The position numbers were made by a program, and so were the translations under genes. From Methylocapsa aurea (GTDB lineage: Bacteria; Pseudomonadota; Alphaproteobacteria; Rhizobiales; Beijerinckiaceae), in the NCBI RefSeq assembly GCF_000746085.1, contig NZ_KN050804.1, positions 1 through 64,000 of the forward strand: a stretch of DNA of 64,000 nt. The letters run 5' to 3'. Below the pieces are notes generated by a model. That model did not search any database and had not been told where the DNA came from. It saw only the letters and a program-made list of their open reading frames with translations. Each line of letters opens with the position of its first letter. Positions within the stretch are counted from its first letter, which is position 1. Shown one piece after another: positions 9,991 to 50,704 of this stretch.

Positions 9991-10084
9991 CAGAAACTCG
10001 CGCTATATATCGTCGCGCGCAGTTTCGTGATGATCTCCAGAGCCGTCAAGCGGCATTGATCGAAGGCAGCGTTTCGAATCTTTT

Positions 10085-10558
10085 CTACGAGGCGCTTGCG
10101 AATTGCTCGAGCAAGGAGTCGCGCGCCTCCGTGATGCGACGATAATCTTCGTCGGCGCCGCCTGCGTCGGGATGCGCAGTCTTGGCCAGACGCCGAAAGG
10201 CGGCATTGATCTCCGACGGCTTGAGCGCACCCTCCATCGGCAGGTTCAGGACCTCGCGATGCTCCTGATCGTCATCGAAATCCGGCTGAAACAGGAAGGC
10301 CCGGCGTTTTTTTCGCGCCTCGAGGCGCAGATCGACCTGATTCTCCCGCCATTTCTGGCGCGACATCACGAGGCATGCGCCAAAGGCGATCCGGCCCCGC
10401 GCTTCAAGTTCATCAAGACTGAACGGCCCCACGACGTCATAGGGCGGCGCCAGAAAGGCGCTTCTGCCGCCCTCGCCATCCTCGATATGGCCGATCGTCA
10501 CCTTATCGAGGATTCCCAGCGAGCCATTCCAGACGACCCATTCCTCTTTGTCCGTCAT
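10085..10558 (-). CDS. J-domain (DnaJ-like) protein
   Basis: 157 aa from MTDKEEWVVWNGSLG. The last 60 residues are a J-domain: EGALKPSEINAAFRRLAKTAHPDAGGADEDYRRITEARDSL, with the obligatory HPD tripeptide. The N-terminal 90 residues are of unknown fold (FLAPPYDVVGPFSLDELEARG). As a C-terminal J-domain protein without Gly/Phe or zinc-finger regions it is a class III Hsp40, probably recruiting DnaK to a specific client. An ATG 15 bases upstream is an alternative start. Confidence 0.85.
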   Translation of the reverse strand: MTDKEEWVVWNGSLGILDKVTIGHIEDGEGGRSAFLAPPYDVVGPFSLDELEARGRIAFGACLVMSRQKWRENQVDLRLEARKKRRAFLFQPDFDDDQEHREVLNLPMEGALKPSEINAAFRRLAKTAHPDAGGADEDYRRITEARDSLLEQFASAS

Positions 10559-10763
10559 GCCGCGCTCTTTCATGTAGGAGCCCGCGCCGCCACCCCGTCT
10601 TTTTGTGCGAAAGGGTTCGCGACAGTTGGACCGTCTGCGCGTCCATGCATGTTCAGAGCCAAGGTTTTGAAACCGCATTCGCCGCATGTGACGTAAATCT
10701 GCAGAGCGTGACGCAATTAATCTATCACTTTCAATGGCTTATTTGCGAGTTGCGACTCCGAAC

Positions 10764-10979
10764 ATGGCCAACCCGGCGGGTGAATCGAATGACGGGGCGC
10801 TCAGGCTCGATTTTGATCTCCGTTTGACGCTGCAACTTCGCCGCTTGGTCGCGCCCGATGCTGGACTTCCTGCGTGTCGCGAACGCGACGATGGCCTCGG
10901 CCTCGGTGCGACGGCCGGGGAAGCGCTTGCGGATGTTCGAACCGGCGAGAACGGCCGGCATGCTCTTGTCGGAATGTTG
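10764..10979 (+). pseudogene. IS1380-family transposase remnant (N-terminal fragment)
   Basis: The frame reads ...DGALRLDFDLRLTLQLRR, DAGLPACRERDDGLGLGATA, ALADVRTGENGRHALVGML. This lines up with the start of IS1380-type transposases (typically LRLDFD...SDAGLLAYRELDDALGL...ALADARTGKNGRHALVGLLRQS), as I recall the family. Homology stops after about 72 residues, and no DDE catalytic region or inverted repeats follow. The surrounding stretch 10559-11258 holds nothing else I can support. Confidence 0.65.
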
Positions 10980-11258
10980 CCGCCATGCCGCTCGACCGTG
11001 CGGACGCGAATGTCCGCTCCGCCGCGCCAATCGCCCAAAGCGGACTCGCCTTCCGGCCCGAATAGCATTTGCCTTGGGCCGGTTCGCGGTCATGTCGGTC
11101 GTTTTGCGAGTTATGGAGCCATTGCCCGAAAGCAGCGTTTTTTCGATCGTCGCCCCTGATTATCAACAATGCGCGCCGAAGGTCGCTGTAGAATTATGCA
11201 ATTCTAGCCTTTCCTATTACGCTCGAAGCATGGCGACCTGCGTTTTCGGGATGCACTC

Positions 11259-11966
11259 GTGCTGATAGAATTTGATCATCGGGAATCGGACTCACCTTAT
11301 GTCGAGCGCATATGGCGCAGCCGGAGCCGGCAGGGCGGCTTCTTCCTCTCCATGGCTGAAAGCAGCATCGAGTTCGTCGTCACCAGACTGCCGGAGTTTT
11401 CGGCAGTGACGCTGCGGGGGCCAGTGTCCAAAGGCGTCCTCGTCGAATGTCCACCGAACGGCGAATGGCTAGCCGTCCGCTTTCGGCTGGGCGCCTATCT
11501 ACCGCAGATCCCGACGGCGACTTTAATCGACCATCAGAATATCCATTTGCCAATGCTCGCCGATGGCCGCTTCTGGTTTTCAGGCCAAGCCTGGGAAATC
11601 CCAAGCTATGACAATGCGGAGAACTTCGTCGCTCGCCTGGCGCGCGCCGGCGTTATCGCGCAGAGCCATGCAACCGACGCTGCGATCGAAGGCGATTGCG
11701 ACCGAATGAGCCTGCGTTCGGTGCAGCGCCATTTTCGCCATGTCACCGGCATGACGTTCAGCAGCTATCGGCAAATTGTGCGGGCCCGTCATGCGGCAGC
11801 CTTGTTGATGGATGGGAGCTCGGTCCTCGATGCGACATTCGACACCGGCTATTTCGATCAGGCGCATCTCACCCGCTCGGTCAAACAACTGATCGGCACG
11901 ACCCCTGCGCGGCTTGCGCGCGAGCGGCCGCAACTGTCGTTCTCATACAAAGCAAAAGGCGCCTGA
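11259..11966 (+). CDS. AraC-family transcriptional regulator
   Basis: 235 aa starting at GTG. The N-terminal half (SPYVERIWRSRSRQGGFFLS, LAVRFRLGAYLPQIP) is the ligand-sensing domain seen in short AraC regulators of Rhizobiales. The C-terminal part has two HTHs: MSLRSVQRHFRHVTGMTFSSY and DATFDTGYFDQAHLTRSVKQ, ending IGTTPARLARE. It precedes the DUF4287 and DoxX genes on the same strand and may control them. Ligand unknown. Confidence 0.87.
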   Translation: MLIEFDHRESDSPYVERIWRSRSRQGGFFLSMAESSIEFVVTRLPEFSAVTLRGPVSKGVLVECPPNGEWLAVRFRLGAYLPQIPTATLIDHQNIHLPMLADGRFWFSGQAWEIPSYDNAENFVARLARAGVIAQSHATDAAIEGDCDRMSLRSVQRHFRHVTGMTFSSYRQIVRARHAAALLMDGSSVLDATFDTGYFDQAHLTRSVKQLIGTTPARLARERPQLSFSYKAKGA

Positions 11967-36978: not shown

Positions 36979-38358
36979 TCAGTGCGCCGCCGCAGGCGCG
37001 TGCGCATCATGCTCAAGATCGCCAGCCGGATGCGGATACCAAGTATCTGGCTTGGCGACATGGGCGTTGGAGATAAACATGTTGCCTATATCGAAAATCA
37101 AATCGCGCGCTCCGCGATACCCGACTGTCGTAATATGTCCCGCCCCCAGTCGATCAAAGATCGGCAAACCCAATCTGAAAAAGGGGATCTGCAGCCGTTG
37201 CGCAGCTTGCCGGCCGTGCGCATGGGTGATGAGAAGATCGCAGCCCGGCGCCATTTTTTCAAAATCCTCGAGATCACCAACGAGGACAGATTCGCAGCGC
37301 ATCCGCTCGAGCACCGGTGATAGGTTGGTGGTCACCGCTACGTCGATGCGACAGCCCATATCCACGAGAAAACTGCTGATGTCCCACAGCAGATCGGGCT
37401 CCGCGCCAATCGCTATTTTCTTGCCTCCAATGTGGAAATGACCGTCCAGCATCGCGTCTACCAACTGACCGCGTTGCCGCTTGATTTTGTTTGGAACCGG
37501 CTTGCCGCTGATCTTCGTCAAAAAGGCGATAAATTCGTCATTGGGCAACAAACCGATCATGCGATCGAAAAGTTGAAACGGAACGCCAGCAACTTGCTTC
37601 AGGGCTTCGGCGGCCGTCCGCATTTGTTCGCCAATGGCGATTGCGTAAAACGCATCGCCAAGATCCGCGATTTCCTCCAAGGAGATCCCGCCCAGCGTCG
37701 TCGGGGTGAAATCGTCGGGGATATGACCATCGAGCGAGCCAGCCAGATCAGGCAAGAACAAAGGATCAAAGCCAAAGGATTCGATGATGTCACGCAATTC
37801 ATCGAGATCGCCCGGCGTCATGTGGCACCCAGGCAGCACCGCAATCTTACGTGAGTTCCGCGGAGCGTCCGCAGGGCGCGGCTTGACCAAGGTTGTGATG
37901 ACCTTGGCCACGGTCTTTTCCCAACCGTCCTGGAAGGCGTCCTTAAAGTCCGGAGTCGAGACATATACTAAAGACACATCGCTCAGTTCGGGATGCTGGG
38001 CCCGAACCTCCTTGATGTAGCCGTCGACATCGTCCCCCTTGGTCTCTGTCACGCCAGTGGAACAGATCCCGATGAGGCGCGCGCGCTGCTTGTTCGAAAT
38101 ATTGACGATCGCCTGTTCGACATTCTCATAACCGCCAAGCACCGTGGCGACTTCGCTCATCGCCGTGGTTTGCAGCGGAATCGCTTCGCGAAAATGCCGC
38201 ACGAATAGAACGAGGCCAAAGGATGTGCAGCCCTGCGATCCATGAAACAGCGGCATGCTGTCCTTGATGCCCATGAAGGCGAGCGCGCCTCCGGCCGGCT
38301 GGCTCATCTTCAAGGGATTAACCGTGCAGGCCTTTTTGGTAACTGAGACTTCGGCCAT
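36979..38358 (-). CDS. nifN: FeMo-cofactor scaffold subunit NifN
   Basis: 459 aa from MAEVSVTKKACTVNPLKMSQ; GAGTGAGG lies just upstream. It has FMGIKDSMPLFHGSQGCTSF with one of the cluster Cys, GICSTGVTETKGDD and the nitrogenase-type C-terminal domain (LPIFDRLGAGHITTVGYRGA). Homologue of NifK. With NifE it forms the NifE2N2 scaffold that matures the cofactor. The start is 12 bp after the nifE stop. Confidence 0.95.
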   Translation of the reverse strand: MAEVSVTKKACTVNPLKMSQPAGGALAFMGIKDSMPLFHGSQGCTSFGLVLFVRHFREAIPLQTTAMSEVATVLGGYENVEQAIVNISNKQRARLIGICSTGVTETKGDDVDGYIKEVRAQHPELSDVSLVYVSTPDFKDAFQDGWEKTVAKVITTLVKPRPADAPRNSRKIAVLPGCHMTPGDLDELRDIIESFGFDPLFLPDLAGSLDGHIPDDFTPTTLGGISLEEIADLGDAFYAIAIGEQMRTAAEALKQVAGVPFQLFDRMIGLLPNDEFIAFLTKISGKPVPNKIKRQRGQLVDAMLDGHFHIGGKKIAIGAEPDLLWDISSFLVDMGCRIDVAVTTNLSPVLERMRCESVLVGDLEDFEKMAPGCDLLITHAHGRQAAQRLQIPFFRLGLPIFDRLGAGHITTVGYRGARDLIFDIGNMFISNAHVAKPDTWYPHPAGDLEHDAHAPAAAH

Positions 38359-38369
38359 TGAACTGATCC

Positions 38370-40265
38370 TCACTCGGCCGCGATCGCAACGGGAGCGGCT
38401 TCAGCCGGCGCGACGAGCTCGGCCAGAATATCGTCAATCGAATCGCAGCAACTGGTGCAGCCGCCGCCCGCTTGTGTGGCCGCAGTCACTTCCGCTACCG
38501 TCGTCAAGCCGTTTGCCCGGATGGCGTCTTCGATGGCGCCGCGATCGATTGACTTGCAGTTGCAGATCTTCGTCGCGCGGCGTTTCTCCTCGAGCTTCAC
38601 CGGATCTGTTTCGATCTCGCCAACGCCAAGATCGGCAAGAATCCCATCGATCGTTCCCCGGCAACTCGTGCAACCGCCGCCGGCATGCGTAATCTCGGTG
38701 ACCTGAGCGACCGTCGTCAGCGCATTGGCGCGGATTGCATCCTCGATTGTTCCCAAATCCACGGTTTTGCATTTGCAGATCTTTTTCGAGCGCCGCTTTT
38801 CTTCTGCCTTGGCCGGATCGGCGGCAAGCTCCGCCGCTTCCTTCGCAGCGGCGGCATCGGCCTTGGCCTGCCAGGTGTCCGACGCGTTTTGCCAGGGCGC
38901 GGGCATGCGAACCTGCTCCCAGATCGGGTTGTAAAGCGCTTTGTCGATCTCCTTCACCAAATCGACCATGCCCTCATAGCCCGCATAAGCGTGGTGCCGC
39001 TCCTGATTAATGTCGAGCCAGGGCATCGACGCCTTCAGCGCAATGAATTGCGAACGCCCACCGGACAACATGATGTCTGCCCGCGCATCCTTCAGCATTT
39101 TATACATCTCGCGGGGCGACATATCATCGAACGCATGGGCGTCATCGCCCATCAGCTCCTTGATGCGCTCCTTGTCCTCTTTCGTGGATTTTTTGACGCT
39201 TGTTCCGACAATCTCAAGTCCAACCTCTTGCAAAGCCGCGACGACAGACCAGGACTTGACGCCGCCGGTGATCAGCAAAACCTTCTTGCCTTTGAGGCGC
39301 GGCGTATATTCGGCCATCCGCTCCCACGCCCGTTTCTCTTCACGAGCAATCACGGCTTCGGCTCGGTCCATAAATTCAGGCGGCGCGCCTCGGTCGATCA
39401 CGAGCTGAGCGAGCTGCCGAATGGAGTCGCTCATATCCCCGATCCCGTAGAAGGACCCCTCAAAATAGGGAATTCCATACAGATCTTCGAGTTTGCGCGT
39501 GATGTTGATCATCGCCTTTGAGCAAACCATCATGGTCGCCCGAGCGCGATGCGCGCGCGCAACTTCGTGATATTTTGCGTCGCCGGAAATGCAGGACAAA
39601 ATACGGAAGCCAATCTCCTTCAGAAGCGGCTCGACCTGCCACATTTCGCCCGCAAGATTATATTCGCCGATAATGTTGACATCATAAGGCGTGGTAAAGT
39701 CGGGCTCTTCCGTCCCAATCACATGCGCCAGAAGCGCTTCCCCGGCAAGCTTGTTGCCCAGGTTCTTTGGCCCAACAAAGCCGGGCGAGTTCACCGGAAC
39801 GATGGGTTTGCCGAATTTCTTCGTTGCCGCTTTGCACACCGCGTCGATATCGTCGCCGATCATCGCGGGGACGCAGGTTTGATAGACGAATACGGAGGGA
39901 GGATTGTATTTCTCGATAATTTCCTTGATGCTTTTATAAAGGCGTTTTTCGCCCCCGAAAACGACGTCCGTCTCATTGATGTCGGTCGTAAAGCCGGTGC
40001 GGTATAAGGTCGAGCCTGACGAATAGGCGCCGCGATTGTCCCAAGAATTTCCTTCGCAGGCGATCGGGCCATGGACAAGATGCGCGACATCCGTGATGGG
40101 CTGGAGAGCAATCTTCGCGCCGTCGAACGCGCAGCCGCCGGCGGCTCCTCCCGGCTGCAATTGCTTCGTGCAGCCTTTCTTACGTTCCTTCTCCGATTTC
40201 GCTGCATTCTTGGGGCAAGCGGGTTCGTTGAAAACGTCTTGAACGGTAGCCGAAACACTGCTCAT
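38370..40265 (-). CDS. nifE: FeMo-cofactor scaffold subunit NifE with two C-terminal BFD-like [2Fe-2S] domains
   Basis: 631 aa, against about 450-480 for typical NifE. Residues 1-470 are the NifE core (QPITDVAHLVHGPIACEGNS, VYQTCVPAMIGDDIDAVC, and a C-terminal domain with HHAYAGYEGMVDL). After an Ala/Lys-rich linker come two near-copies of a NifU-middle/BFD-like domain: residues 495-546 (KICKCKTVDLG...AGGGCTSCRG) and 566-617 (KICNCKSIDRG...AGGGCTSCCD), each with CxC and CxxC cluster ligands. The copies are about 70% alike, separated by 19 residues. The extension may store or hand on Fe-S units; inference. Confidence 0.95.
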   Translation of the reverse strand: MSSVSATVQDVFNEPACPKNAAKSEKERKKGCTKQLQPGGAAGGCAFDGAKIALQPITDVAHLVHGPIACEGNSWDNRGAYSSGSTLYRTGFTTDINETDVVFGGEKRLYKSIKEIIEKYNPPSVFVYQTCVPAMIGDDIDAVCKAATKKFGKPIVPVNSPGFVGPKNLGNKLAGEALLAHVIGTEEPDFTTPYDVNIIGEYNLAGEMWQVEPLLKEIGFRILSCISGDAKYHEVARAHRARATMMVCSKAMINITRKLEDLYGIPYFEGSFYGIGDMSDSIRQLAQLVIDRGAPPEFMDRAEAVIAREEKRAWERMAEYTPRLKGKKVLLITGGVKSWSVVAALQEVGLEIVGTSVKKSTKEDKERIKELMGDDAHAFDDMSPREMYKMLKDARADIMLSGGRSQFIALKASMPWLDINQERHHAYAGYEGMVDLVKEIDKALYNPIWEQVRMPAPWQNASDTWQAKADAAAAKEAAELAADPAKAEEKRRSKKICKCKTVDLGTIEDAIRANALTTVAQVTEITHAGGGCTSCRGTIDGILADLGVGEIETDPVKLEEKRRATKICNCKSIDRGAIEDAIRANGLTTVAEVTAATQAGGGCTSCCDSIDDILAELVAPAEAAPVAIAAE

Positions 40266-40432
40266 CAGAACCTCCTCACCCGCCGACCCACCACCGCCGG
40301 GCTATCCACGCCATCCAATTGGCGCAATGCGCCCTCGTGGCGCATAAATGGGCGCCACGATATCCGGCGTCCAAGAGATTAGCGCCCAAGGAATGGACAA
40401 ATTTACCAACAGAAAATGCCTTTAAGATCAAA

Positions 40433-40471
40433 CGGCGGGCGAATGAACTTTTTTAAGTTCGCTGCCCGCCG
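40433..40471 (-). terminator. Strong hairpin after nifK
   Basis: Stem CGGCGGGC (40433-40440) with GCCCGCCG (40464-40471) and an inner GAACTT/AAGTTC pair. On the nifK transcript it begins 25 nt after the stop. The sequence following is TTTGATCTTAAAG, a weak U-run. It may terminate, attenuate, or protect the nifHDK 3' end while letting some read-through to nifE. Confidence 0.6.
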
Positions 40472-40495
40472 CATTGTTAGCGCGCGCGCCGAAGA

Positions 40496-42058
40496 TCAGC
40501 GGATAATGTCGTAGCTGAAATCCGAATGGGCCGGGACGATTGTGTTTCTATCGATCTCTTCGAAAATGCGATCCAGAATCCAGACCAGCACGTTGAGGCC
40601 GCCCTGATAGCCCCACACCGGATAGCGATGGTGATGATGGCGATCAAAGATCGGGAACCCGATGCGAATCAGCGGGGTTCCGGTATCGCGCTCCAGATAC
40701 TTGCCGTAGGTGTTGCCGATCAGGAAGTCGACCGGCTCGGTGAACAGCAGCGAGCGCATGTGCCACAGATCCCGAAGCGGATAAACATGGCAATTGGCGC
40801 CGAACTGGTTGGCGTCGAGCATCGCCTGAACCTTGGCTTCCCATGCCTTGCCGCCATTGGTGGCGAGGATATGGGTGGGTTCGCCGCCGCATTCCATCAA
40901 GAATTCAGCAAGACCGATGCACAGATCCGGATCGCCATAGATGGCGAATTTCTTCCCATGGATATGGGCGCTCGAATCAGCCAGGGCGTCGACGAGACGG
41001 CCGCGCTCGAGTTTGAGCTGGTCGGGAACCGGCTTGCCGGTAATCCGGGAGATCTCCATCAGGAACTTGTCGGTCGCCTGGACGCTGATCGGATGGTTGA
41101 AAGAAACCGTCTCCTGGTCCCATTCCGACTTGATGTAGTTCAGCGTCTTTTCGGTGCAATATTCCTGCATCGAAATGGTCGCCTTGGCATGGACCGCCGC
41201 ATTCATTTCATCAATGGTCGTGCCGCCATCGAACATGCGGAACGTGCCGTCCGTCGGCGTATCCCACACATCGCTATTGTCGGCGATCATCGTATATTCG
41301 ACGCCCATGAGGTCGAAGATCCGCTTGATTTCGCGAAGGTTGCCAACGGTGTAGGGATCAAATCCACCAATGAAATTGATCGTCTCATTCGGCACGCGCT
41401 GGAGCTTTTCGACCGTGCCGGCCTTGCCGCCCCAGAAATGCTCGAACACGCCCTTGAGAACATTGTCGTAGCCGGTGATATGGCTGCCGACGAATGCGGG
41501 AGTATGAGCGAAAGGAACGTCATAGGCTTCGGGAACCGACCCTTTGCTCTTCGCCGTCTTGATGAAGGCATTGAGATCGTCGCCGATCACTTCGGCCATG
41601 CAGGTGGTGGAAACCGAAATCATCTTCGGCTTATAAAGATTGTAGGTATTGGCCAGACCGTCGACCATATTGTTGAGGCCGCCAAAAACCGCCGCATCTT
41701 CCGTCATCGATGACGAGACGCACGAGCTCGGCTCTTTAAAGTGGCGCGAAAAATGGCTCCGGTAATAGGCGACGCAGCCCTGCGAGCCATGGACGAAAGG
41801 CACGGTGCCCTCGAAGCCAACAGCGGCGAACACGGCGCCCAGCGGCTGGCAGGCTTTGGCTGGATTGACGGTCAGAGCTTCGCGGGCAAAATTCTTCTCG
41901 CGATATTCCGGCGTCTTGGTCCATTCGACAACCCGCTGCAACTCGGCTTCGGCAACGGGATTTTCGAAGTTTTTCTTCTTATTCGCGAGCATCTCCCGAT
42001 ATTCCGGCTGCCGGAACAGGTCGAAGTGGTCGAGAACGTGATCGGCGTTTTGAGGCAT
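40496..42058 (-). CDS. nifK: Nitrogenase MoFe protein beta chain NifK
   Basis: 520 aa. P-cluster ligands Cys70 (PAKACQPLG), Cys95 (GSQGCVAYY) and Cys153 ([12 protein letters not shown]) fall at the same numbers as in the Azotobacter protein. The N-terminus [20 protein letters not shown] and the end (DFSYDIIR) are family-typical. Forms the alpha2beta2 MoFe protein with NifD. 79 bp after nifD, with a hairpin between. Confidence 0.98.
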
Positions 42059-42103
42059 TCTGAAAATCCTTTGATGTGTTTTTCCCGCTGCACCCCGGCT
42101 GTG

Positions 42104-42128
42104 GCCCTCCCCTTTTTCAGGGGAGGGC
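42104..42128 (-). promoter_or_regulatory. nifD-nifK intergenic hairpin
   Basis: Perfect 10-bp arms GCCCTCCCCT (42104-42113) and AGGGGAGGGC (42119-42128), 5-nt loop. It lies within the nifHDK transcript and is likely an RNA processing or stability element. Confidence 0.6.
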
Positions 42129-42137
42129 TAGCGGAGA

Positions 42138-43598
42138 TTAGAACGGAGCCTTCGTCAGACCCCAGATCGGGGAATTGATGGCCATGTCCATGTCGCGCGC
42201 GAAAATGGCGAAGCCATCGTAGCCGTGATACGGACCGGAATAATCCCACGAATGCATCTGACGGAAAGGCACGCCCATCTTCTGGAAGACGTATTTTTCC
42301 TTGATGCCCGAACCAACGAGGTCCGGCTGGATCTTTTCGACGAATTTCTCGAACTCGAAGCCGGTCACGTCATCATAGATCAGCGTGCCGTCTTTGACGT
42401 AATGGGTCGTGCGCTGATAGTCGTCATTGTGACCGAACTCGTAGCCGGTCCCGACGACTTCCATGCCGAGATCTTCGTAAGCGCCGATCACGTGCCGAGG
42501 ACGCAGGCCGCCAACGAACAGCATGACCTTGCGGCCATGAAGGCGAGGACGGTATTTCTCGATCACCGCATCCGAAAGAGCCGCATATTTCGCGATGACG
42601 CGCTCGGCGCCTTCCTTGATCTTGTCGTCGAAATGGCTGGCGATGGTGCGCAGCGATTCGGCGATCTTGCTCGGTCCGAAGAAGTTATACTCCACCCACG
42701 GAACGCCAAACTTTTCTTCCATGTGGCGGGAGATGTAGTTCATCGAACGGTAGCAGTGAAGAACGTTGAGCTTCGCCTTCGGCGTCGCCTCGAGTTCGGC
42801 GATCGAACCGTCGCCAGACCACTGCGCAATGACGCGAAGGCCCATTTCTTCGAGCAGAATGCGCGAAGACCAGGCGTCGCCGCCAATGTTGTAATCGCCG
42901 ATGATGGCGACGTCATAGGGCGTCTGTTCGAAGGTGGCGGGCTTGCCCTCCATCTTGTCGAACACCCAGTCGCGGATCGAATCGTTCGCGATGTGATGGC
43001 CGAGCGATTGCGACACGCCGCGGAAGCCTTCGCAGCGGACCGGAACAATGGTCTTGCCGCCGTATTCGCGCGACTTCTGCTTCGACACCGCCTCGATGTC
43101 GTCGCCGATGAGGCCGATTGGGCATTCGGACTGAACCGTAACGCCGTGATTCAGCGGGAACAGCTCCATGATCTCGTCCATGATCTTGGCAAGCTTCTTG
43201 TCGCCGCCGAAGACAATGTCCTTCTCTTGGAAATCCGAGGTGAACTGCATCGTCACGAAAGTGTCGACGCCAGTCGTGCCGATGTAGTAGTTCCGGCGCG
43301 AAGCCCAGGAATACTGACCGCAGCCGACCGGACCGTGGCTGATGTGGATCATGTCCTTGATCGGGCCCCAGACCACGCCCTTCGAACCGGCGTAGGCGCA
43401 ACCGCGAATCGTCATCACGCCCGGGACGGACTTGATGTTGGACTTAACCGAGCAATCGGTCTTGCCTTCATTGAACTGGTTGAGGTGCTTGGCGCGGTTC
43501 TTTTTGCTCTTCTCGGGATAGGCTTCGAGGACCTCGGCAATGAGCTCCTTGTTCCTCTGCTTGATCTCTTCAATTGTTTCGGGTGCTGATAGGCTCAT
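42138..43598 (-). CDS. nifD: Nitrogenase MoFe protein alpha chain NifD
   Basis: 486 aa. P-cluster Cys at 67 (TIRGCAYAG), 93 (PVGCGQYSW) and 159 (QSECPIG); FeMo-co ligands Cys282 (LHCYRSMNY) and His449 ([10 protein letters not shown]). All are present, so the protein should be active Mo-nitrogenase, not a V or Fe-only form. The N-terminus [19 protein letters not shown] is typical. 76 bp after nifH. Confidence 0.98.
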
Positions 43599-43631
43599 GC
43601 CAATCTCCTGAAGTCACTTATAAGCCGATCA

Positions 43632-43655
43632 CTGACCCCTCCGAAGAGGGGTCAG
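43632..43655 (-). promoter_or_regulatory. nifH-nifD intergenic hairpin with UUCG loop
   Basis: Perfect 10-bp stem CTGACCCCTC (43632-43641) and GAGGGGTCAG (43646-43655). On the transcript the loop is C(UUCG)G, an exceptionally stable tetraloop. It is placed to protect the nifH 3' end and give more nifH than nifDK message. Confidence 0.65.
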
Positions 43656-43674
43656 ATCAAAGTTTAAGCAAGCA

Positions 43675-44655
<981 letters not shown>

Positions 44656-44698
44656 TCAAATGCCTTGATCTCGGCGACGTATCCCCGGCCCCTATAAG

Positions 44699-44713
44699 GC
44701 AATCGCCGTGCCA
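44699..44713 (-). promoter_or_regulatory. Sigma-54 promoter of nifHDK
   Basis: Minus strand TGGCACGGCGATTGC, a perfect TGGCACG-N4-TTGC. Transcription should start near 44687, giving a 5' leader of about 137 nt. Confidence 0.9.
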
Positions 44714-44781: not shown

Positions 44782-44797
44782 TGTTCCGATTCCGACA
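44782..44797. promoter_or_regulatory. NifA activator site UAS1
   Basis: TGT-TCCGATTCCG-ACA, an exact TGT-N10-ACA, centred about 78 bp upstream of the nifH -24 box. Confidence 0.75.
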
Positions 44798-44810: not shown

Positions 44811-44826
44811 TGTCATGAACAAAACA
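44811..44826. promoter_or_regulatory. NifA activator site UAS2
   Basis: TGT-CATGAACAAA-ACA, an exact TGT-N10-ACA, 29 bp beyond UAS1. It could serve nifH and the divergent promoter at 44965. Confidence 0.75.
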
Positions 44827-44964: not shown

Positions 44965-44979
44965 AGGAACAAAACTTGC
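44965..44979 (+). promoter_or_regulatory. Divergent sigma-54 promoter candidate for the receiver gene
   Basis: AGGAACAAAACTTGC: GG-N10-GC spacing with a perfect TTGC and a GGxAC -24 half. It lies about 150 bp from UAS2 and 78 bp before the ATG at 45057. Together with the sites above it fills the 506-bp nifH/receiver gap (44551-45056). Confidence 0.55.
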
Positions 44980-45056
44980 TTTTCGCCATTGCGGCGACGC
45001 CCTCGTCAGGCATCAAGAGCGTCGCGACGGGCGAATAAAATTATAGCGAGGTAGAC

Positions 45057-45521
45057 ATGCAGATCGGCGTCGACAATGAACGCAGAGTTGAGAACAAACG
45101 CGTCTTCGTCATCGACAATGATGGAATGACCGGATCCATCCTTCAGTTCATGCTTGAGGATGATAACGAAACGCATGAGTTCGCGACCGTCGCCGAGGCG
45201 TTCGATGCTTCGGAAAAGGTGATTTACGGCAAGACAGAGAAGTCGATCCCGCAGCTTCTGATTGTCGGCGTCAATATTCTGGAAGAAAAAGGCATTGGCG
45301 TCCTGAAGGAAATCGCTGAAAAGTTTCCGCAGGCGAAGATCATCGTCGTCGCCGACAATGCCGAGGTTCCGCTCGCCAAGGAGGCCCTCGCCAAAGGCGG
45401 CGGCGCGCATGGCATTTTAACGAAGCCGCTGACCGTTGAGGTCGTCCGCCGCAAAGTCGACATGCTGCTGGGCCGATTGAAGAGCGAATTCGTGCAACTT
45501 GGCGACTTCAATTTCGGCTGA
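45057..45521 (+). CDS. Degenerate response-regulator receiver protein, divergent from nifH
   Basis: 154 aa, single CheY-like fold without output domain: KRVFVIDNDGMTGSILQFML (strand 1 with acidic pair), PQLLIVGVNILEEKGIGVL (strand 3), AKIIVVADNAEVPLA, GAHGILTKPLTVEVV (conserved Lys and cis-Pro). The phospho-acceptor Asp expected after strand 3 is replaced: LLIVGVNIL reads Gly where LLDLN-type receivers have Asp. So it is probably a phosphorylation-independent or protein-binding receiver. GAGGT precedes the ATG. Position and promoter tie it to nitrogen fixation. Confidence 0.85.
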   Translation: MQIGVDNERRVENKRVFVIDNDGMTGSILQFMLEDDNETHEFATVAEAFDASEKVIYGKTEKSIPQLLIVGVNILEEKGIGVLKEIAEKFPQAKIIVVADNAEVPLAKEALAKGGGAHGILTKPLTVEVVRRKVDMLLGRLKSEFVQLGDFNFG

Positions 45522-45675: not shown

Positions 45676-46122
45676 ATGGCGGATATTGTCTTTTACGAGA
45701 AGCCGGGCTGCGCCAATAACGCGCGGCAAAAGCAGCTTCTTGAGGCGGCCGGGCACAAGTTGGATGTCCGCAACCTCTTGAACGAGCCCTGGAGCGCCGA
45801 TCGCCTGCTTGCCTTTTTTGGGCGCAGGCCAGTGGCGGAGTGGTTCAATAAGGCGGCGCCAAGGGTGAAATCGGGCGCCATCGACCCAGAAAAGCTGGAC
45901 CCAGCCGGAGCGATCGCGCTGATGCTCGCCGAACCGCTGCTGATCCGGCGCCCGCTGATGGAATCGGGCGGCGTGCGCGCGGTGGGTTTCGATCCCGCCT
46001 ATGTTGACAGCTGGGTGGGGCTGACCAATCCGCGCGCGCAAGGCGCTGACTTGGAGACCTGCCGGCGCGGGTCCTCGACGCCTGATCCGTCAGGGAATGA
46101 GCAAGATGAGGCCGCGCCATGA
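45676..46122 (+). CDS. ArsC/Spx-family nitrogenase-associated protein (NifO-like)
   Basis: 148 aa. Thioredoxin-like ArsC fold: ADIVFYEKPGCANNARQKQLL with the conserved Cys at about residue 12, then HKLDVRNLLNEPWSADRLLAFFG and LLIRRPLMESGG. It is the nitrogenase-associated subfamily (TIGR01616 type), related to NifO of Azotobacter, which affects Mo partition between nitrogenase and nitrate reductase. The C-terminal 30 residues are an acidic tail. Overlaps the next gene by 4 bp. Confidence 0.85.
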   Translation: MADIVFYEKPGCANNARQKQLLEAAGHKLDVRNLLNEPWSADRLLAFFGRRPVAEWFNKAAPRVKSGAIDPEKLDPAGAIALMLAEPLLIRRPLMESGGVRAVGFDPAYVDSWVGLTNPRAQGADLETCRRGSSTPDPSGNEQDEAAP

Positions 46123-48122
46123 CCGCGGCGCCTAATCCCGCGGCAAATGCCGCCGAAGTCATACTCGCCTATCACCAGCGCACCAAACATCGCCTGGAGC
46201 GCTATGCGGCGGGACCCGAAACCCTCGATTGGTCCGAACAGCCAAACCCTTTTCGGGAATTCTCGGGAGCCGCCCGCATTCTGCTCCCTTTGGGGGCGGA
46301 CGATGTCGCGACGCCTTTTTCGGAAATCTATCAAGGCCGGAGCGGCCCGGCCGCGCCCCTCACCCTTGGCTCGCTTGGAACCCTGCTGCAACTCTCCTTG
46401 GCGCTGGCCGCCTGGAAGGAATATGGCCCCGACCGCTGGGCGCTGCGGTGCGCCCCATCGAGCGGCAATCTGCATCCGACCGAGGCCTATGTTCTGAGCC
46501 GGAGGATCGTGGGCCTCGAGGATGGCGTCCATCACTATGTCAGCCGCGATCATAGTCTCGAGAAGCGCTGCGCGGTTGATTGGCCAACGACAGAAAGCGC
46601 GCCGCTGCTTTGGATCGGGCTGGCGTCGATCCATTGGCGCGAGGCCTGGAAATATGGCGAAAGGGCCTTCCGCTATTGCCAGCTCGATGTCGGTCACGCG
46701 ATCGGAGCCTTGCGCTACGCCGCCGGCGCGCTTGGCTGGAAGGCCGAAATGGTCGAGGAGCCCGGCAGCCGGGAGATCGCCCGCTTGCTCGGCCTCGACC
46801 GCGGCGAGGATTTTGGCGCGGCGGAAAGCGAAACCCCTGATCTCCTTCTCGCGCTCTACCCGGCGGCCGAACGCCCCGAGACGGCTCAAAGCCTCATCCC
46901 GCCTGAGCGGCAAACCGGCTGGACGGGGCGCGCCAATGTGCTCGACCGCCACCCGATGTATAAATGGCCGGTGATCGAGGAAGCCTCGCTGGCGACGCGC
47001 AAGAGCGCGGCGGCGCGGGATCAGGCGCAAACACCGCATTTCCCCGCGCTCAATTCCGGGTCGCGGATTGCGGCCAAGGACCTGATCTTGAACCGGCGCA
47101 GCGCGCAAGGATTCGACAAGCGCGGCTCGATGAGCGCGGAGGCCTTCTTTCACATTCTGGACCGCCTGCTGCCGCGCAAGGTCGCGCCCTGGGACGTCTG
47201 GAGCTTTACGCCGCGCATCCATCCGGTCTTTTTCGTTCATCGCGTCGAAGGACTGGAGCCCGGGCTTTATATCCTCCTGCGCAACCCTGGCGCCGAGCCG
47301 CAGCTGCGCGACGCGACGCACAAGGATTTCGTCTGGCGCAAACCCGACGCGGCGCCGGAGCATTTCGATTTCTATCAGCTCATCGCCACCGATTGCGTGA
47401 AATTGGCGAGGACTTTGAACTGCCATCAGCCCATCGCCGCCGATAGCTGCTTCGCGCTCGGCATGATCAGCGAGTTCGAAAGCCTCGTGCGGGCCGAGCC
47501 CTGGCGCTACAAGCAATTGCATTGGGAGGCCGGCCTGCTTGGCCATGTGCTCTATCTGGAGGCCGAGGCGCTGGGTCTGCGCGGCACCGGAATCGGCTGC
47601 TATTTCGACGATTCCATGCATGAAGTCCTCGGTCTGAAGCACGCCGCCTTCGCCTCGCTTTACCATTTTACCCTGGGCCATCCCCTGGTCGACAATCGGA
47701 TCATGACCCTGCCGCCCTATGCCCATCGGGAGGCCGGGGGCGAACCGCCGAGCGAGACTTCGCCCGCCGATGCAACAACCGACGCAACGCAAAAAGGAGC
47801 AGCAGCGATGAGTGAGGAAGCGACGTTCCAGCGCATTGGCGCGGACTTCGCCCGGGAGCTGATGAGCGGCGGGCAAGCCCTGGTCCTAGACATGCGCGAC
47901 CCCGGCTCGTTCGAAAGCGGCCATATCGATGGCGCCGAACATGTCAACGAAGCCAATATCTTCCAATTTCTATCTGGAACGCCGAAGGACAAGCCGGTGC
48001 TGATCTATTGCTACCACGGCAATGCAAGTCAGGTTTACGCCAAGACCTTCGCCGATTTCCGCTTCAGCAAGGTCTATAGCCTCGATGGCGGCTATGAAGG
48101 CTGGAAAAAAGCTGTTGGATAA
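46119..48122 (+). CDS. SagB-type duplicated nitroreductase fused to a rhodanese domain
   Basis: 667 aa. Residues about 25-250 and 310-540 are two nitroreductase-like halves of a SagB/ThcOx FMN oxidoreductase (CAPSSGNLHPTEAYVLSRR and KDLILNRRSAQGFDKRGSMS; GLLGHVLYLEAEALGLRGTGIGCYFDD). Residues 564-667 form a GlpE-like rhodanese: LVLDMRDPGSFESGHIDGA and active-site loop LIYCYHGNASQ with catalytic Cys. A strong internal site, AAGGAG, 8 nt before Met564, could also yield free rhodanese. Peptide-azoline oxidation is the SagB role elsewhere, but no precursor or cyclodehydratase lies nearby, so the function here is open. Confidence 0.85.
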   Translation: MTAAPNPAANAAEVILAYHQRTKHRLERYAAGPETLDWSEQPNPFREFSGAARILLPLGADDVATPFSEIYQGRSGPAAPLTLGSLGTLLQLSLALAAWKEYGPDRWALRCAPSSGNLHPTEAYVLSRRIVGLEDGVHHYVSRDHSLEKRCAVDWPTTESAPLLWIGLASIHWREAWKYGERAFRYCQLDVGHAIGALRYAAGALGWKAEMVEEPGSREIARLLGLDRGEDFGAAESETPDLLLALYPAAERPETAQSLIPPERQTGWTGRANVLDRHPMYKWPVIEEASLATRKSAAARDQAQTPHFPALNSGSRIAAKDLILNRRSAQGFDKRGSMSAEAFFHILDRLLPRKVAPWDVWSFTPRIHPVFFVHRVEGLEPGLYILLRNPGAEPQLRDATHKDFVWRKPDAAPEHFDFYQLIATDCVKLARTLNCHQPIAADSCFALGMISEFESLVRAEPWRYKQLHWEAGLLGHVLYLEAEALGLRGTGIGCYFDDSMHEVLGLKHAAFASLYHFTLGHPLVDNRIMTLPPYAHREAGGEPPSETSPADATTDATQKGAAAMSEEATFQRIGADFARELMSGGQALVLDMRDPGSFESGHIDGAEHVNEANIFQFLSGTPKDKPVLIYCYHGNASQVYAKTFADFRFSKVYSLDGGYEGWKKAVG

Positions 48123-48597
48123 CTCGCCCCCCTGCCTCCCGGCGCTGAGCGAGGCCTTGCAAGCATTCCTTGCCGAACAAGGCTTCCCGCCCGCCGGCGT
48201 CAACGCCGTCGCCGCCAATGATATGACGCCCCTCATGCGGGCCGCCTATCAGGGGCCCCCCGCCCTCGTCGCCGAGCTGCTGCGGGCCGGCGCGCGGGTC
48301 GACTCCTGCAACGGCGATGGCGGCCAGCCGCTCTGGCTCGCCTGCGTCGGCGACGATCCCGAAATCGTCGCGATGATCATCGCGGCGGGGGCCGATCTCG
48401 ACCATAAAAACGTCAATGGGTCGACGGCGCTCATGTATGCCGCCTCCGCCGGCAAGGCCAAGGCCCTGGCGAAACTCCTCGCCGCGGGAGCCGATCTCGA
48501 CTATGAACTCGATGGCGTCGGCGCCCTCGACATGGCCGCGACGCTCGAGTGCCTCAATCTCATGCGGGAAGCAAAGCGCCGCCGGGCAAAATCCTGA
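48094..48597 (+). CDS. Ankyrin-repeat protein, end of the nifO-like operon
   Basis: 167 aa. Three to four ankyrin repeats: DMTPLMRAAYQGPPALVAELLRAGARVDSCN, GGQPLWLACVGDDPEIVAMIIAAGADLDHKN, GSTALMYAASAGKAKALAKLLAAGADLDY. Basic tail REAKRRRAKS. It overlaps the 3' end of the SagB-rhodanese gene by 29 bp in another frame, so translation is coupled; a TTG at 48114 is an alternative start. Probably a protein-binding adapter; partner unknown. Confidence 0.8.
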   Translation: MKAGKKLLDNSPPCLPALSEALQAFLAEQGFPPAGVNAVAANDMTPLMRAAYQGPPALVAELLRAGARVDSCNGDGGQPLWLACVGDDPEIVAMIIAAGADLDHKNVNGSTALMYAASAGKAKALAKLLAAGADLDYELDGVGALDMAATLECLNLMREAKRRRAKS

Positions 48598-48849
48598 AGG
48601 CGGCGCGCCGCGCCAAATTGTCCTGCCTATGGCTTTGTCGTGTGGTTTCCGACAATCACGGGCGCGCGGTGCGGCAAGCTCCAGGCGCCTTAGCCGAGAT
48701 AATCCGTCGAAACAAAGAGATAGCACTCTGGCCATTCCCCTGGCCCCGATCGCGCGCGGGTCTTGCGACCGCATGAGGCCTGATTTCCACCGGCGGCGAA
48801 AATGCTCTAAGAACCTGGAATCAGATTTTCTCAGGTTCGATTGACCCTC

Positions 48850-49515
48850 ATGACGCCGACTTCAGAAAACAGCAGCCATAGCCTCCCGCGCGAATCGGAA
48901 GCCCTCAGCGCGTCGCCGCGCCTGTTCGCCAACCCGGTGCTCGATAAATTGTCCCGGGTCCATTGGTCGACGCCGCTCTTTATCTATCTGCCGCTTGTCG
49001 CCGTCCTCGCCTTTGTCAGCCTTTCGACATATGCCGCTCCGGCCGTCGCCGCCGCCGCCGCCCTTGGCTATCTGATTTGGACCCTCGTCGAATATTTCGG
49101 GCATCGCTATCTGTTCCACTATGAATTCCCCGGCGCGTTCGGCGCGCGAATCCATTTTCTGATCCATGGCGTTCATCACGTGCATCCGAATGATCCGCTG
49201 CGCCTCGTCATGCCGGCGCTGCTCAGCAGCCCGATCATGCTGATCGCCTATGGCCTCCTGCGGCTTCTCTTCGGCCACCCCTTGGCCTATCCGGTCATGA
49301 TGGGCTTTCTCCTCGGCTATCTCGCCTATGACATGGTGCATTACTATGTGCATCATGGCGAGCCGACGACGCGCGTCGGCCTGACTTTCCGGCGTCTCCA
49401 TTTGCTGCATCATTTCCGCGATCCCACCCGCGGCTTCGGGGTCAGCGCGCCCTGGTGGGACTATGTGTTCAAGACCGAATTCGTTCGGCAAAGCCGCACC
49501 GGAGCCGACGCCTGA
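48850..49515 (+). CDS. Fatty-acid hydroxylase/sterol desaturase family protein (FA2H-like)
   Basis: 221 aa membrane protein. Di-iron His boxes: YFGHRYLFHYEFPG, HFLIHGVHHVHPND, YYVHHGEP and LHLLHHFRDPTRGFGVSAPWWDYVF. Hydrophobic segments near residues 40-75 and 120-155. Box spacing is that of FA2H/Scs7, which 2-hydroxylate fatty acids of ceramides. ATG at 48850 preferred to a TTG nine bases earlier. Convergent with a ceramide glucosyltransferase-like gene, which supports a sphingolipid role. The 252-bp gap before it holds a short AACCTG/CAGGTT inverted repeat only. Confidence 0.85.
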   Translation: MTPTSENSSHSLPRESEALSASPRLFANPVLDKLSRVHWSTPLFIYLPLVAVLAFVSLSTYAAPAVAAAAALGYLIWTLVEYFGHRYLFHYEFPGAFGARIHFLIHGVHHVHPNDPLRLVMPALLSSPIMLIAYGLLRLLFGHPLAYPVMMGFLLGYLAYDMVHYYVHHGEPTTRVGLTFRRLHLLHHFRDPTRGFGVSAPWWDYVFKTEFVRQSRTGADA

Positions 49516-49546
49516 CGACAAGACCCCGATCAGGCGGCGCCTTCCG

Positions 49547-50704
49547 TCAGTCGGCATCCTCACGCGAGGCCCTCGCCGCCTCCCGCGCGCCTTTGCGCGC
49601 ATCGAAACGGCCCTTGCCCCAGACAACATCATGGGTGGTCCAGGCGTGAAGCCAAGCCGAAAGGCTGAGTATCTCGCGGCCCAGGAAGGCTAGCGGCGAC
49701 CAAGGCGAAACCTCCCAACCTTTCAAAATGGCAAAAGCCATTTCGGCGCAGAACCATCCGAAGAGAGTAGCGCAAAACCCCCACCAGGCCGGAGTTCCCA
49801 TCAGCGGCGCGGCGAGAGCGCCGGCCAGGGCGGCAGGAAGCGGACTGCCAAGCGGCTCAAGCGGAAAGGAAAAGCGCTCGTTCGCGCGCCGGATCACGCT
49901 CCAGCGCGCCTGGCGCTGATAGATCTCGCGCAGGCTGCGGGCGCCGATCTCCTGAGCGACAGTGCGATGGGCGAACACGGTTCTGAGCCCCAAGCGCGCA
50001 AGACCCGTCGAAATCGCGGTATCTTCGGCAAGCATATGGCTCATCGCCTCGATCCCGCCCGCCCTGGCGAGATCGCTGCGCCGAAACAGCATCGCCTTGC
50101 CAACGCCAAAGCCAATCCCAAGGACCGAGGCGCTGAGCAGCAACCGCGCATGTCCATTGAGCAGGAAAGCTTCAATCCGCCCGGCGAAACTCTCCGGCCG
50201 CACCGCGACCGGAACCGCGACGACGAGGCCGACGCCTCGCGCGAAATTTTGCATGAAAGCAGCCAACGTGTCGCGTTCGAGCGTCATGTTCGAATCCTTG
50301 ATGAAGACGAAATCATGCCGCGCCTGCGCGAGCGGCGCCGTCAGATTGTTGAGCTTGGGACTGACCGCCGCCGCCGCCTCCGAGCGCAGGATGCGGCAGC
50401 AGCGCCAGGGATAGCCGCCAGCGACCCTTCGCGCCGCGTCAAGCGCCGGGGATTGGCTCTCGGCGGCGCTGATCAAAATCTCGTAGTCCGGATAGTCTTG
50501 GAGAAACATCGACTCTTGCGCGGTCTCGAAACCGGACTCGAGCAATTTGATAGGCGCGATCACCGAGACCGGCGGCAGCTTTGCATTTGTCGCCCGCCGC
50601 TTCTGGACAAGGGGTTGCACAAGTCCGCAGCAAAGACTGAGGCAAAAAAGCGCAAGCGCGAGGCACCACCAAACCGCCCCGGCATAGGAAAAAAACGACG
50701 CCAT
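49547..50704 (-). CDS. Glycosyltransferase, ceramide glucosyltransferase-like (GT21)
   Basis: 385 aa. N-terminal membrane anchor (SYAGAVWWCLALALFCLSLCCGLV), then PPVSVIAPIKLLESGFE, AAAVSPKLNNLTAPL, FVFIKDSNMTL (D2 motif), AEDTAIS (D3) and QRQARWSVIRR, the (Q/R)xxRW motif of the family. C-terminal hydrophobic segments anchor it. It should transfer a hexose from a nucleotide sugar to a lipid; ceramide is the best guess because of the FA2H-like neighbour. Confidence 0.8.
   Translation of the reverse strand: MASFFSYAGAVWWCLALALFCLSLCCGLVQPLVQKRRATNAKLPPVSVIAPIKLLESGFETAQESMFLQDYPDYEILISAAESQSPALDAARRVAGGYPWRCCRILRSEAAAAVSPKLNNLTAPLAQARHDFVFIKDSNMTLERDTLAAFMQNFARGVGLVVAVPVAVRPESFAGRIEAFLLNGHARLLLSASVLGIGFGVGKAMLFRRSDLARAGGIEAMSHMLAEDTAISTGLARLGLRTVFAHRTVAQEIGARSLREIYQRQARWSVIRRANERFSFPLEPLGSPLPAALAGALAAPLMGTPAWWGFCATLFGWFCAEMAFAILKGWEVSPWSPLAFLGREILSLSAWLHAWTTHDVVWGKGRFDARKGAREAARASREDAD

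What the first reader, a model, noticed from the sequence alone, without database searches (positions are those of the whole stretch)
45676..48597. NifO-like / SagB-rhodanese / ankyrin operon next to nifH
Three genes overlap one another: an ArsC-type nitrogenase-associated protein, a duplicated SagB-type FMN oxidoreductase fused to a rhodanese, and an ankyrin protein. Azotobacter has separate nifO and rhdN (rhodanese) genes near nifQ, so the rhodanese fits sulfur handling for cofactor assembly. A SagB-type flavoenzyme in this setting is not explained by peptide-azoline chemistry, since no precursor or cyclodehydratase is present. It may be a redox or persulfide enzyme for nitrogenase.
Basis: partly seen in the sequence, partly recalled or inferred. 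Interest (0 to 1): 0.7.

Follow-up and report, generated by a model that had tools for sequence, protein, structure and literature searches.

The report
Nitrogenase-linked flavoenzyme fused to rhodanese
Beside the nitrogenase genes of a methanotroph relative lies a little-studied flavin enzyme fused to a sulfur-carrier domain; the same gene set sits next to nitrogenase genes in nitrogen-fixing bacteria of several classes, so it is probably an overlooked helper of nitrogen fixation.

Summary
Divergent from nifHDKEN lie a receiver-like gene, NifO (TIGR01616, above cut-off), a 667-aa protein with two SagB/nitroreductase halves plus a GlpE-like rhodanese, and an ankyrin gene. The last three overlap (4 and at least 29 nt). 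Two NifA-type sites and divergent sigma-54-like promoters lie between nifH and the operon; the paired sites recur in 8 of 8 relatives scanned, the outward promoter in 4. In a 135-row tree the window's clade (39 rows; Alpha-, Beta-, Gammaproteobacteria, Acidithiobacillus) has 33 nif-adjacent rows, 5 with nif elsewhere, 1 without. The rhodanese is fused or next in 33 of 39, against 1 of 96 other rows. Sister lineages pair the gene with nifZ. The wider family is not nif-specific: 25 of 46 carriers in a 398-genome sample lack nifD, and two nif clusters keep NifO-rhodanese without it. The genome has no YcaO, so azoline chemistry is unlikely. Best reading: a NifA-controlled, dispensable FMN redox accessory of nitrogenase working with sulfane sulfur; chemistry inferred, not shown. 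A 2014 paper probably describes one member as a rhodanese; ten searches found no paper naming it a nif flavoenzyme.

The parts
46119..48122 (+). 667-aa fusion: tandem SagB/nitroreductase halves plus C-terminal GlpE-like rhodanese
   Evidence: full-length relatives; AF2 model of residues 1-545 with pLDDT 89.8
46119..46943 (+). N-terminal SagB half (residues 1-275): PSSGNLHP loop, WREAWKYGERAFRYCQLD motif, Cys187
   Evidence: TIGR03605 over cut-off at residues 82-230; conserved columns
46944..47753 (+). C-terminal nitroreductase half (residues 276-545): RRSAQ, Cys435, GTGIGCYFDD with Cys494
   Evidence: second Pfam Nitroreductase stretch; Cys435 and Cys494 in 135 of 135 rows
47823..48113 (+). 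rhodanese domain (residues 569-665), catalytic loop CYHGNAS with Cys631
   Evidence: PF00581, NF001195 stretch 569-665; the Cys in 44 of 44 aligned matches
45676..46122 (+). nifO (draB), ArsC/Spx-type nitrogenase-associated protein; its stop overlaps the SagB start by 4 nt
   Evidence: TIGR01616 178.1 bits; Cys12 in 44 of 44 aligned matches
48094..48597 (+). ankyrin-repeat protein overlapping the end of the rhodanese (alternative start 48022)
   Evidence: PF12796, PF00023; sequence
45057..45521 (+). receiver-domain protein, first gene of the divergent block; Gly at the phospho-acceptor position
   Evidence: PF00072; Gly71 in 32 of 33 aligned matches
44965..44980 (+). sigma-54-like promoter facing the receiver-nifO-SagB operon (9 of 11 consensus positions)
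   Evidence: similar sites at like places in L040, L043, L045, L063; not in L037, L038, L041 at this threshold
44698..44713 (-). sigma-54-like promoter facing nifH (10 of 11)
44782..44797 (.). NifA-type upstream activator site TGT-N10-ACA
   Evidence: a pair of such sites in 8 of 8 relatives scanned
44811..44826 (.). second NifA-type site
43675..44649 (-). nifH
   Evidence: TIGR01287 447.9 bits
36979..43598 (-). nifD, nifK, nifE, nifN
   Evidence: TIGR01282, 01286, 01283, 01285 over cut-off

Best explanation
The operon encodes a nitrogenase accessory module. Shown by sequence: it is a conserved block, divergent from nifH, with NifA-type and sigma-54-like sites, so it is most likely switched on with nifHDK. 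Inferred: the tandem SagB protein is an FMN oxidoreductase whose N half carries the flavin site (as in ThcOx) and whose two halves form the dimer-like fold within one chain. It works with the attached or neighbouring GlpE-type rhodanese, which carries sulfane sulfur as a cysteine persulfide, to set the redox state of thiols or persulfides used in building or repairing nitrogenase metal-sulfur clusters. NifO and the ankyrin protein are partners, for metal or nitrate-related control and for docking. The module helps nitrogen fixation but is dispensable.
For: Block conserved beside nifH in Beijerinckiaceae, Xanthobacter, Azorhizobium, Methylococcus and others. Clade of 39 rows: 33 nif-adjacent, 5 nif elsewhere, 1 none; 30 of the 33 by nifH/D/K/E/N/U/X, 3 only by nifO or draT (contexts). 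Rhodanese fused or next in 33 of 39 against 1 of 96 other rows (labels, counts). Fusion in the window's 7-row subclade and once more in L073 (808-aa frame). Sister lineages: nifZ-SagB beside iscA-nifU-nifS-nifV, or nifHDK-nafY-LRV-nifZ-SagB. NifA/sigma-54 layout. Cys435 and Cys494 in 135 of 135 rows, Cys187 in 129 of 135. A more distant plasmid homologue lies among BolA, Grx4, NifU, LipA, rhodanese, NifU and SelO genes. No YcaO in the genome. Excess with nifD: 13 of 16 against 13 of 133 relatives, 21 of 46 against 20 of 352 in the phylum sample; one-sided Fisher 2.6e-9 and 1.1e-11, not corrected for kinship.
Against: No direct evidence of FMN, substrate, persulfide transfer or phenotype. 20 of 41 nifD genomes in the phylum sample lack the gene, and 25 of 46 carriers lack nifD. 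G003 and G074 keep receiver-nifO-rhodanese beside nifH without a SagB gene there, so the rhodanese does not need it. The sister nifZ lineages have no rhodanese next door. The solved relative 3eo7 lacks the three cysteines at the aligned places but has a Cys one residue away from two of them, so their meaning is unsure. Other neighbours (truncated haemoglobin, flavorubredoxin, DraT/DraG, Rieske protein) fit oxygen or nitric-oxide protection equally well.
Confidence: 0.45

Rival explanations
1. The SagB flavoprotein is a redox-protection enzyme (reducing O2, NO, peroxide or oxidised thiols) co-expressed with nitrogenase, and the rhodanese removes excess sulfane sulfur.
For: Neighbours in relatives include group II truncated haemoglobin and a Rieske protein, flavorubredoxin and DraT/DraG. 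Non-nif members sit beside SelO (3 loci) or a gene of a cluster in 4 loci, one member of which was identified as peptide methionine sulfoxide reductase.
Against: Those neighbours vary between lineages, whereas rhodanese, ankyrin and nifO are the recurrent ones in the window's clade. No oxidase or reductase activity is known.
Confidence: 0.3
2. It is a true SagB-type dehydrogenase that modifies a peptide or protein, oxidising an azoline or similar Cys/Ser/Thr-derived ring.
Against: No YcaO cyclodehydratase in a 99.99% complete genome; recurrent partners are nif, rhodanese and ankyrin genes. A precursor peptide was not searched for.
Confidence: 0.08
3. It is a flavin-binding but non-catalytic protein, storing or buffering FMN like the Acg family, needed when flavin demand rises.
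Against: The Lys-Tyr motif and cysteines are almost invariant, more than flavin storage needs; the rhodanese fusion is unexplained.
Confidence: 0.07
4. Hitch-hiker: the genes travel with nif clusters by descent or transfer without working in nitrogen fixation.
For: Many diazotrophs lack them; the family occurs without nif.
Against: Shared NifA/sigma-54 intergenic layout, different nif contexts in different lineages, overlapping genes and repeated fusion.
Confidence: 0.1

Closest known systems
Ava_2154, PDB 3eo7 (putative nitroreductase, Anabaena variabilis)
   Different: At the aligned places of Cys187, Cys435 and Cys494 it has Ile, Leu and Gly (with a Cys one residue away from the first two); Arg instead of Lys in the KY motif; 511 aa, no rhodanese matched; called unpublished in PMC8795117 (passages)
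SagB / McbC / ThcOx / BmdC FMN dehydrogenases of peptide natural products
   Same: TIGR03605 domain, fold, Lys-Tyr motif; the FMN domain of ThcOx resembles 3eo7 residues 97-245 (PMC5108345, passages)
   Different: No YcaO in the genome, nif context, tandem halves with a rhodanese
A. vinelandii nifOQ-rhdN-grx5nif minor nif cluster
   Same: NifO and a rhodanese among nif genes (PMC9866876, one passage)
   Different: No SagB flavoprotein or ankyrin gene is named in that passage; the rhodanese is separate
draTGB of Azospirillum (DraB = NifO)
   Same: NifO homologue; the DraT-DraG-SagB-rhodanese-ankyrin-nifO block of L138 resembles it (PMC5249018, passages)
   Different: The paper's main text has ankyrin 0 and rhodanese 0 times; SagB was not looked up in it
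'sseA' rhodanese of acid-mine fosmid DX-1A-14 (PMC3912193)
   Same: Listed near nifS, a globin and a receiver gene; 1629 bp, 55% to a Beijerinckia indica rhodanese-domain protein. Locus L089 here has a 1629-bp SagB gene, 55% to L039 over 535 residues, with globin-, nifS- and LRV-like neighbours, so it is probably this SagB protein
   Different: Named a rhodanese there; a 542-aa product hardly has room for both SagB halves and a rhodanese. The fosmid sequence itself was not compared

Membership tests
SagB/ThcOx-type dehydrogenase (TIGR03605) | profile score over the curated cut-off | tested here: met
   99.8 against 78.4 bits, residues 82-230
SagB/ThcOx-type dehydrogenase (TIGR03605) | nitro-FMN reductase fold like McbC/ThcOx | tested here: met
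SagB/ThcOx-type dehydrogenase (TIGR03605) | YcaO cyclodehydratase in the same genome to make azolines | tested here: not met
   PF02624 0 matches in the own genome; control rings in 5 of 14 genomes
SagB/ThcOx-type dehydrogenase (TIGR03605) | precursor peptide | not tested
   no precursor search was made
SagB/ThcOx-type dehydrogenase (TIGR03605) | bound FMN | not testable with these tools
   needs purified protein
GlpE-type rhodanese (NF001195) | equivalog score over cut-off | tested here: not met
   90.4 against 102 bits; the general Rhodanese PF00581 is met
GlpE-type rhodanese (NF001195) | catalytic Cys loop | tested here: met
   Cys in 44 of 44 aligned matches
NifO / nitrogenase-associated protein (TIGR01616) | profile score over cut-off | tested here: met
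   178.1 against 109 bits
NifA/sigma-54 regulon | TGT-N10-ACA sites and a -24/-12 promoter facing the operon | tested here: met
   two sites and a 9-of-11 promoter in the window; consensus recalled
NifA/sigma-54 regulon | NifA-dependent transcription | not testable with these tools
   no expression data at hand
Acg-like flavin-storage proteins | fold and lack of catalysis | tested here: inconclusive

The most novel reading that the evidence does not exclude
A nif-dedicated SagB-type flavoenzyme, fed by a persulfide-carrying rhodanese, performs an unrecognised redox step in maturation or repair of nitrogenase metal clusters; its pairing with NifZ in other lineages points to the P-cluster, with the conserved cysteines as part of the active site.
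Probability: 0.22. Interest if true: 0.85.

Novelty: new variant of a known kind. Interest (0 to 1): 0.6.

Why it matters
It adds a candidate flavin redox component to the list of nif accessory genes, in a form that can be tested by deletion in non-pathogenic diazotrophs. It would show SagB-type enzymes at work outside peptide natural products, may explain why a member is named rhodanese in print (a fusion carried the name over), and may matter for moving nitrogenase into other hosts, where cofactor maturation is a bottleneck.

Tried and rejected
RiPP azoline chemistry: rejected as main reading because the genome has no YcaO match. Family-wide nif exclusivity: rejected, 25 of 46 carriers in the phylum sample lack nifD, though several of these are incomplete assemblies. 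Essentiality for nif: rejected, G003 and G074 have nifHDKEN with receiver-nifO-rhodanese but no SagB gene there; G003 has a 43% paralogue elsewhere. Sigma-54 sites before nifZ-SagB: facing nifZ in 2 of 17 loci scanned, facing iscA in 17 of 17. Paper searches on the tandem family (8 papers, 6 listed; passages of two) and on the Lys-Tyr pair gave no function for it. The second AF2 job was not used; alignment A3 was built for it and left. I found no model coordinates in the Python box, so distances between the cysteines and the flavin site were not measured.

Full report
What is there. The window carries nifHDKEN on the minus strand (36979-44649). On the plus strand, after 407 nt from the nifH ORF start, run a receiver-domain gene (45057-45521), nifO (45676-46122), the 667-aa tandem SagB-rhodanese protein (46119-48122) and an ankyrin gene ending at 48597. 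The own genome has 3.97 Mb in 34 contigs at 99.99% completeness.

Regulation. Between nifH and the receiver gene lie two TGT-N10-ACA sites (44782, 44811) and two sigma-54-like promoters, one facing each way (consensus recalled). The whole window has 13 promoter-like sites of 9 or more out of 11, so about 0.2 would be expected in the 1.1 kb scanned; it holds two, and two of the window's 6 activator-type sites. All eight relatives scanned have at least two activator sites. A promoter facing the receiver operon at the like place was seen in L040, L043, L045 and L063, not at this threshold in L037, L038 and L041; L039 has one, but on the other side of the activator sites.

Conservation of the block. 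Among 149 relatives (own genome included), 16 carry a SagB homologue matching over most of its length, and 13 of these 16 have nifD, against 13 of the other 133 (Fisher 2.6e-9). Of the 3 without nifD, G005 and G063 are 88% and 78% complete; G055 is complete and has a NifO gene but no nifD. Receiver-nifO-SagB-rhodanese next to a divergent nifH was seen in L037, L038, L039, L040, L041, L043 and L045. L052 and L054 have receiver-nifO-rhodanese beside nifH without SagB, a result against a strict need. Of 37 loci measured, the rhodanese is fused to SagB in 8 (the window, L069, L070, L071, L039, L040, L041 and L073, whose 808-aa frame also runs into the ankyrin repeat), separate in 25 (its match starting within 50 nt of the SagB stop in 24), and not found in 4 (L046, L088, L092, L106).

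Beyond the family. nifD was then searched in the genomes of 50 of these 80, none of which showed nifH, D or K in its flanks: 40 of 50 are over the nifD cut-off, 2 more (L078, L125) show only a weaker match that may be nifE, 8 show none. A Methylococcus plasmid has the same block in a gammaproteobacterium, with four extra genes between receiver and nifO.

Tree. FastTree on 135 proteins (SH-like support, no bootstrap). The window sits in a clade of 39 rows (support 99): 33 nif-adjacent, 5 with nif elsewhere (one of these, L078, only by the weaker match), 1 with none (L089, which does have nifS- and LRV-like genes beside it). 'Adjacent' was a label of my own: nifH, D, K, N, O, U, X, a nifE match of 50% or more, nifZ or draT within the fetched locus. 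Since nifO belongs to the block itself, the stricter count is 30 of 39 with nifH/D/K/E/N/U/X; L044, L079 and L138 count only by nifO or draT, and the assembly of L044 has no nifD. The rhodanese is fused or next in 33 of these 39 and in 1 of the other 96; one search counted 29 of 35 plus the four rows that its re-rooting left out. An ankyrin match is present in 35 of 39 by the same count. The next larger clade has 79 rows (support 95): 53 adjacent, 24 elsewhere, 2 none. The remaining rows are mixed. In sister lineages the gene follows nifZ beside iscA-nifU-nifS-nifV-cysE (Methylobacter and kin) or follows nifHDK-nafY-LRV-nifZ.

An even sample. In 398 genomes of the phylum (own included), 46 carry the family at E 1e-60 and 41 carry nifD; 21 carry both, 4.7 expected (Fisher 1.1e-11, not corrected for kinship). 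I looked at the surroundings of 41 of the 46 (5 not fetched; some contigs short): only the own locus, L164, L171 and L199 were nif-adjacent by my label. So the family is broader than nif, and a nif-dedicated clade lies inside it. Outside, neighbours include SelO in three loci, a methionine sulfoxide reductase cluster in four loci and an Fe-S biogenesis cluster on a Polaromonas plasmid.

Mechanism. Shown: the block, its nif link, its regulatory sites, its fusion to a rhodanese with a conserved catalytic cysteine. Inferred: FMN binding, redox work on thiols or persulfides, role in cluster assembly or repair. Redox protection of nitrogenase is the main rival and is not separated by the present data. 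Azoline oxidation is unlikely because YcaO is absent.

Literature. Ten full-text searches of open papers. SagB with nitrogenase: 1 paper, listing only, on exopolysaccharides. nifO, rhodanese, ankyrin, nifH, three of four: none. Nitrogen fixation, nif cluster, nitroreductase, rhodanese: none. SagB, dehydrogenase, rhodanese: none. nifZ, nitroreductase, nifU: 2, listing only. rhdN, nifO, Azotobacter, two of three: 11, passages of two read. McbC and residues: 2 unrelated. nifH, ankyrin, nitroreductase, rhodanese, NifZ, three of five: 8, of which I read passages and two sections of PMC3912193. SagB with nitrogen fixation: 11, 10 listed, listing only; by title the nearest is a survey of peptide gene clusters in Synechococcus. 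3eo7 and tandem nitroreductase: 8, 6 listed, passages of two. PMC3912193 lists a 1629-bp 'rhodanese' gene near nifS, globin and a receiver gene with a sigma-N site; L089 matches its length, identity and neighbours, so this gene family is probably already in print under another name. That L039 is Beijerinckia indica rests on recall of the chromosome length. NifO background comes from PMC5249018 (passages): a proposed role in distributing molybdenum, with no specific function defined.

Noticed in passing
45057-45521 and relatives: The nif-divergent receiver protein has Gly instead of the phospho-acceptor Asp in 32 of 33 aligned matches, and a conserved MQIGV start: a conserved pseudo-receiver next to nifH.
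   Followed up: partly
38373-40265: NifE is 631 aa with a C-terminal stretch (563-627) matching positions 132-196 of NifU; several relatives share it.
   Followed up: no
L073 about 8900-11390: An 808-aa frame joins SagB, rhodanese and part of the ankyrin repeat; could be a true triple fusion or an assembly effect.
   Followed up: partly
L063 10108-10695; L077, L084, L088, L090, L091, L106, L127: A conserved protein of about 200 aa recurs in nif clusters of several classes; the L090 member has no Pfam match.
   Followed up: partly
L067 4242-13584 (Methylocella tundrae plasmid p1): A second, 42%-identical SagB paralogue lies 7.3 kb from a NifO copy, with FixA-like electron-transfer genes and a truncated haemoglobin between.
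   Followed up: no
L066 (Polaromonas plasmid): A SagB relative within an Fe-S biogenesis gene cluster next to SelO and MoaA.
   Followed up: no
L068 (Pseudomonas aeruginosa plasmid): A SagB-like frame broken into pieces and not annotated over most of its length; described only.
   Followed up: no
48841-50704: A fatty-acid hydroxylase-type gene and, on the other strand, an HpnI-like glycosyltransferase below its cut-off follow the operon.
   Followed up: no
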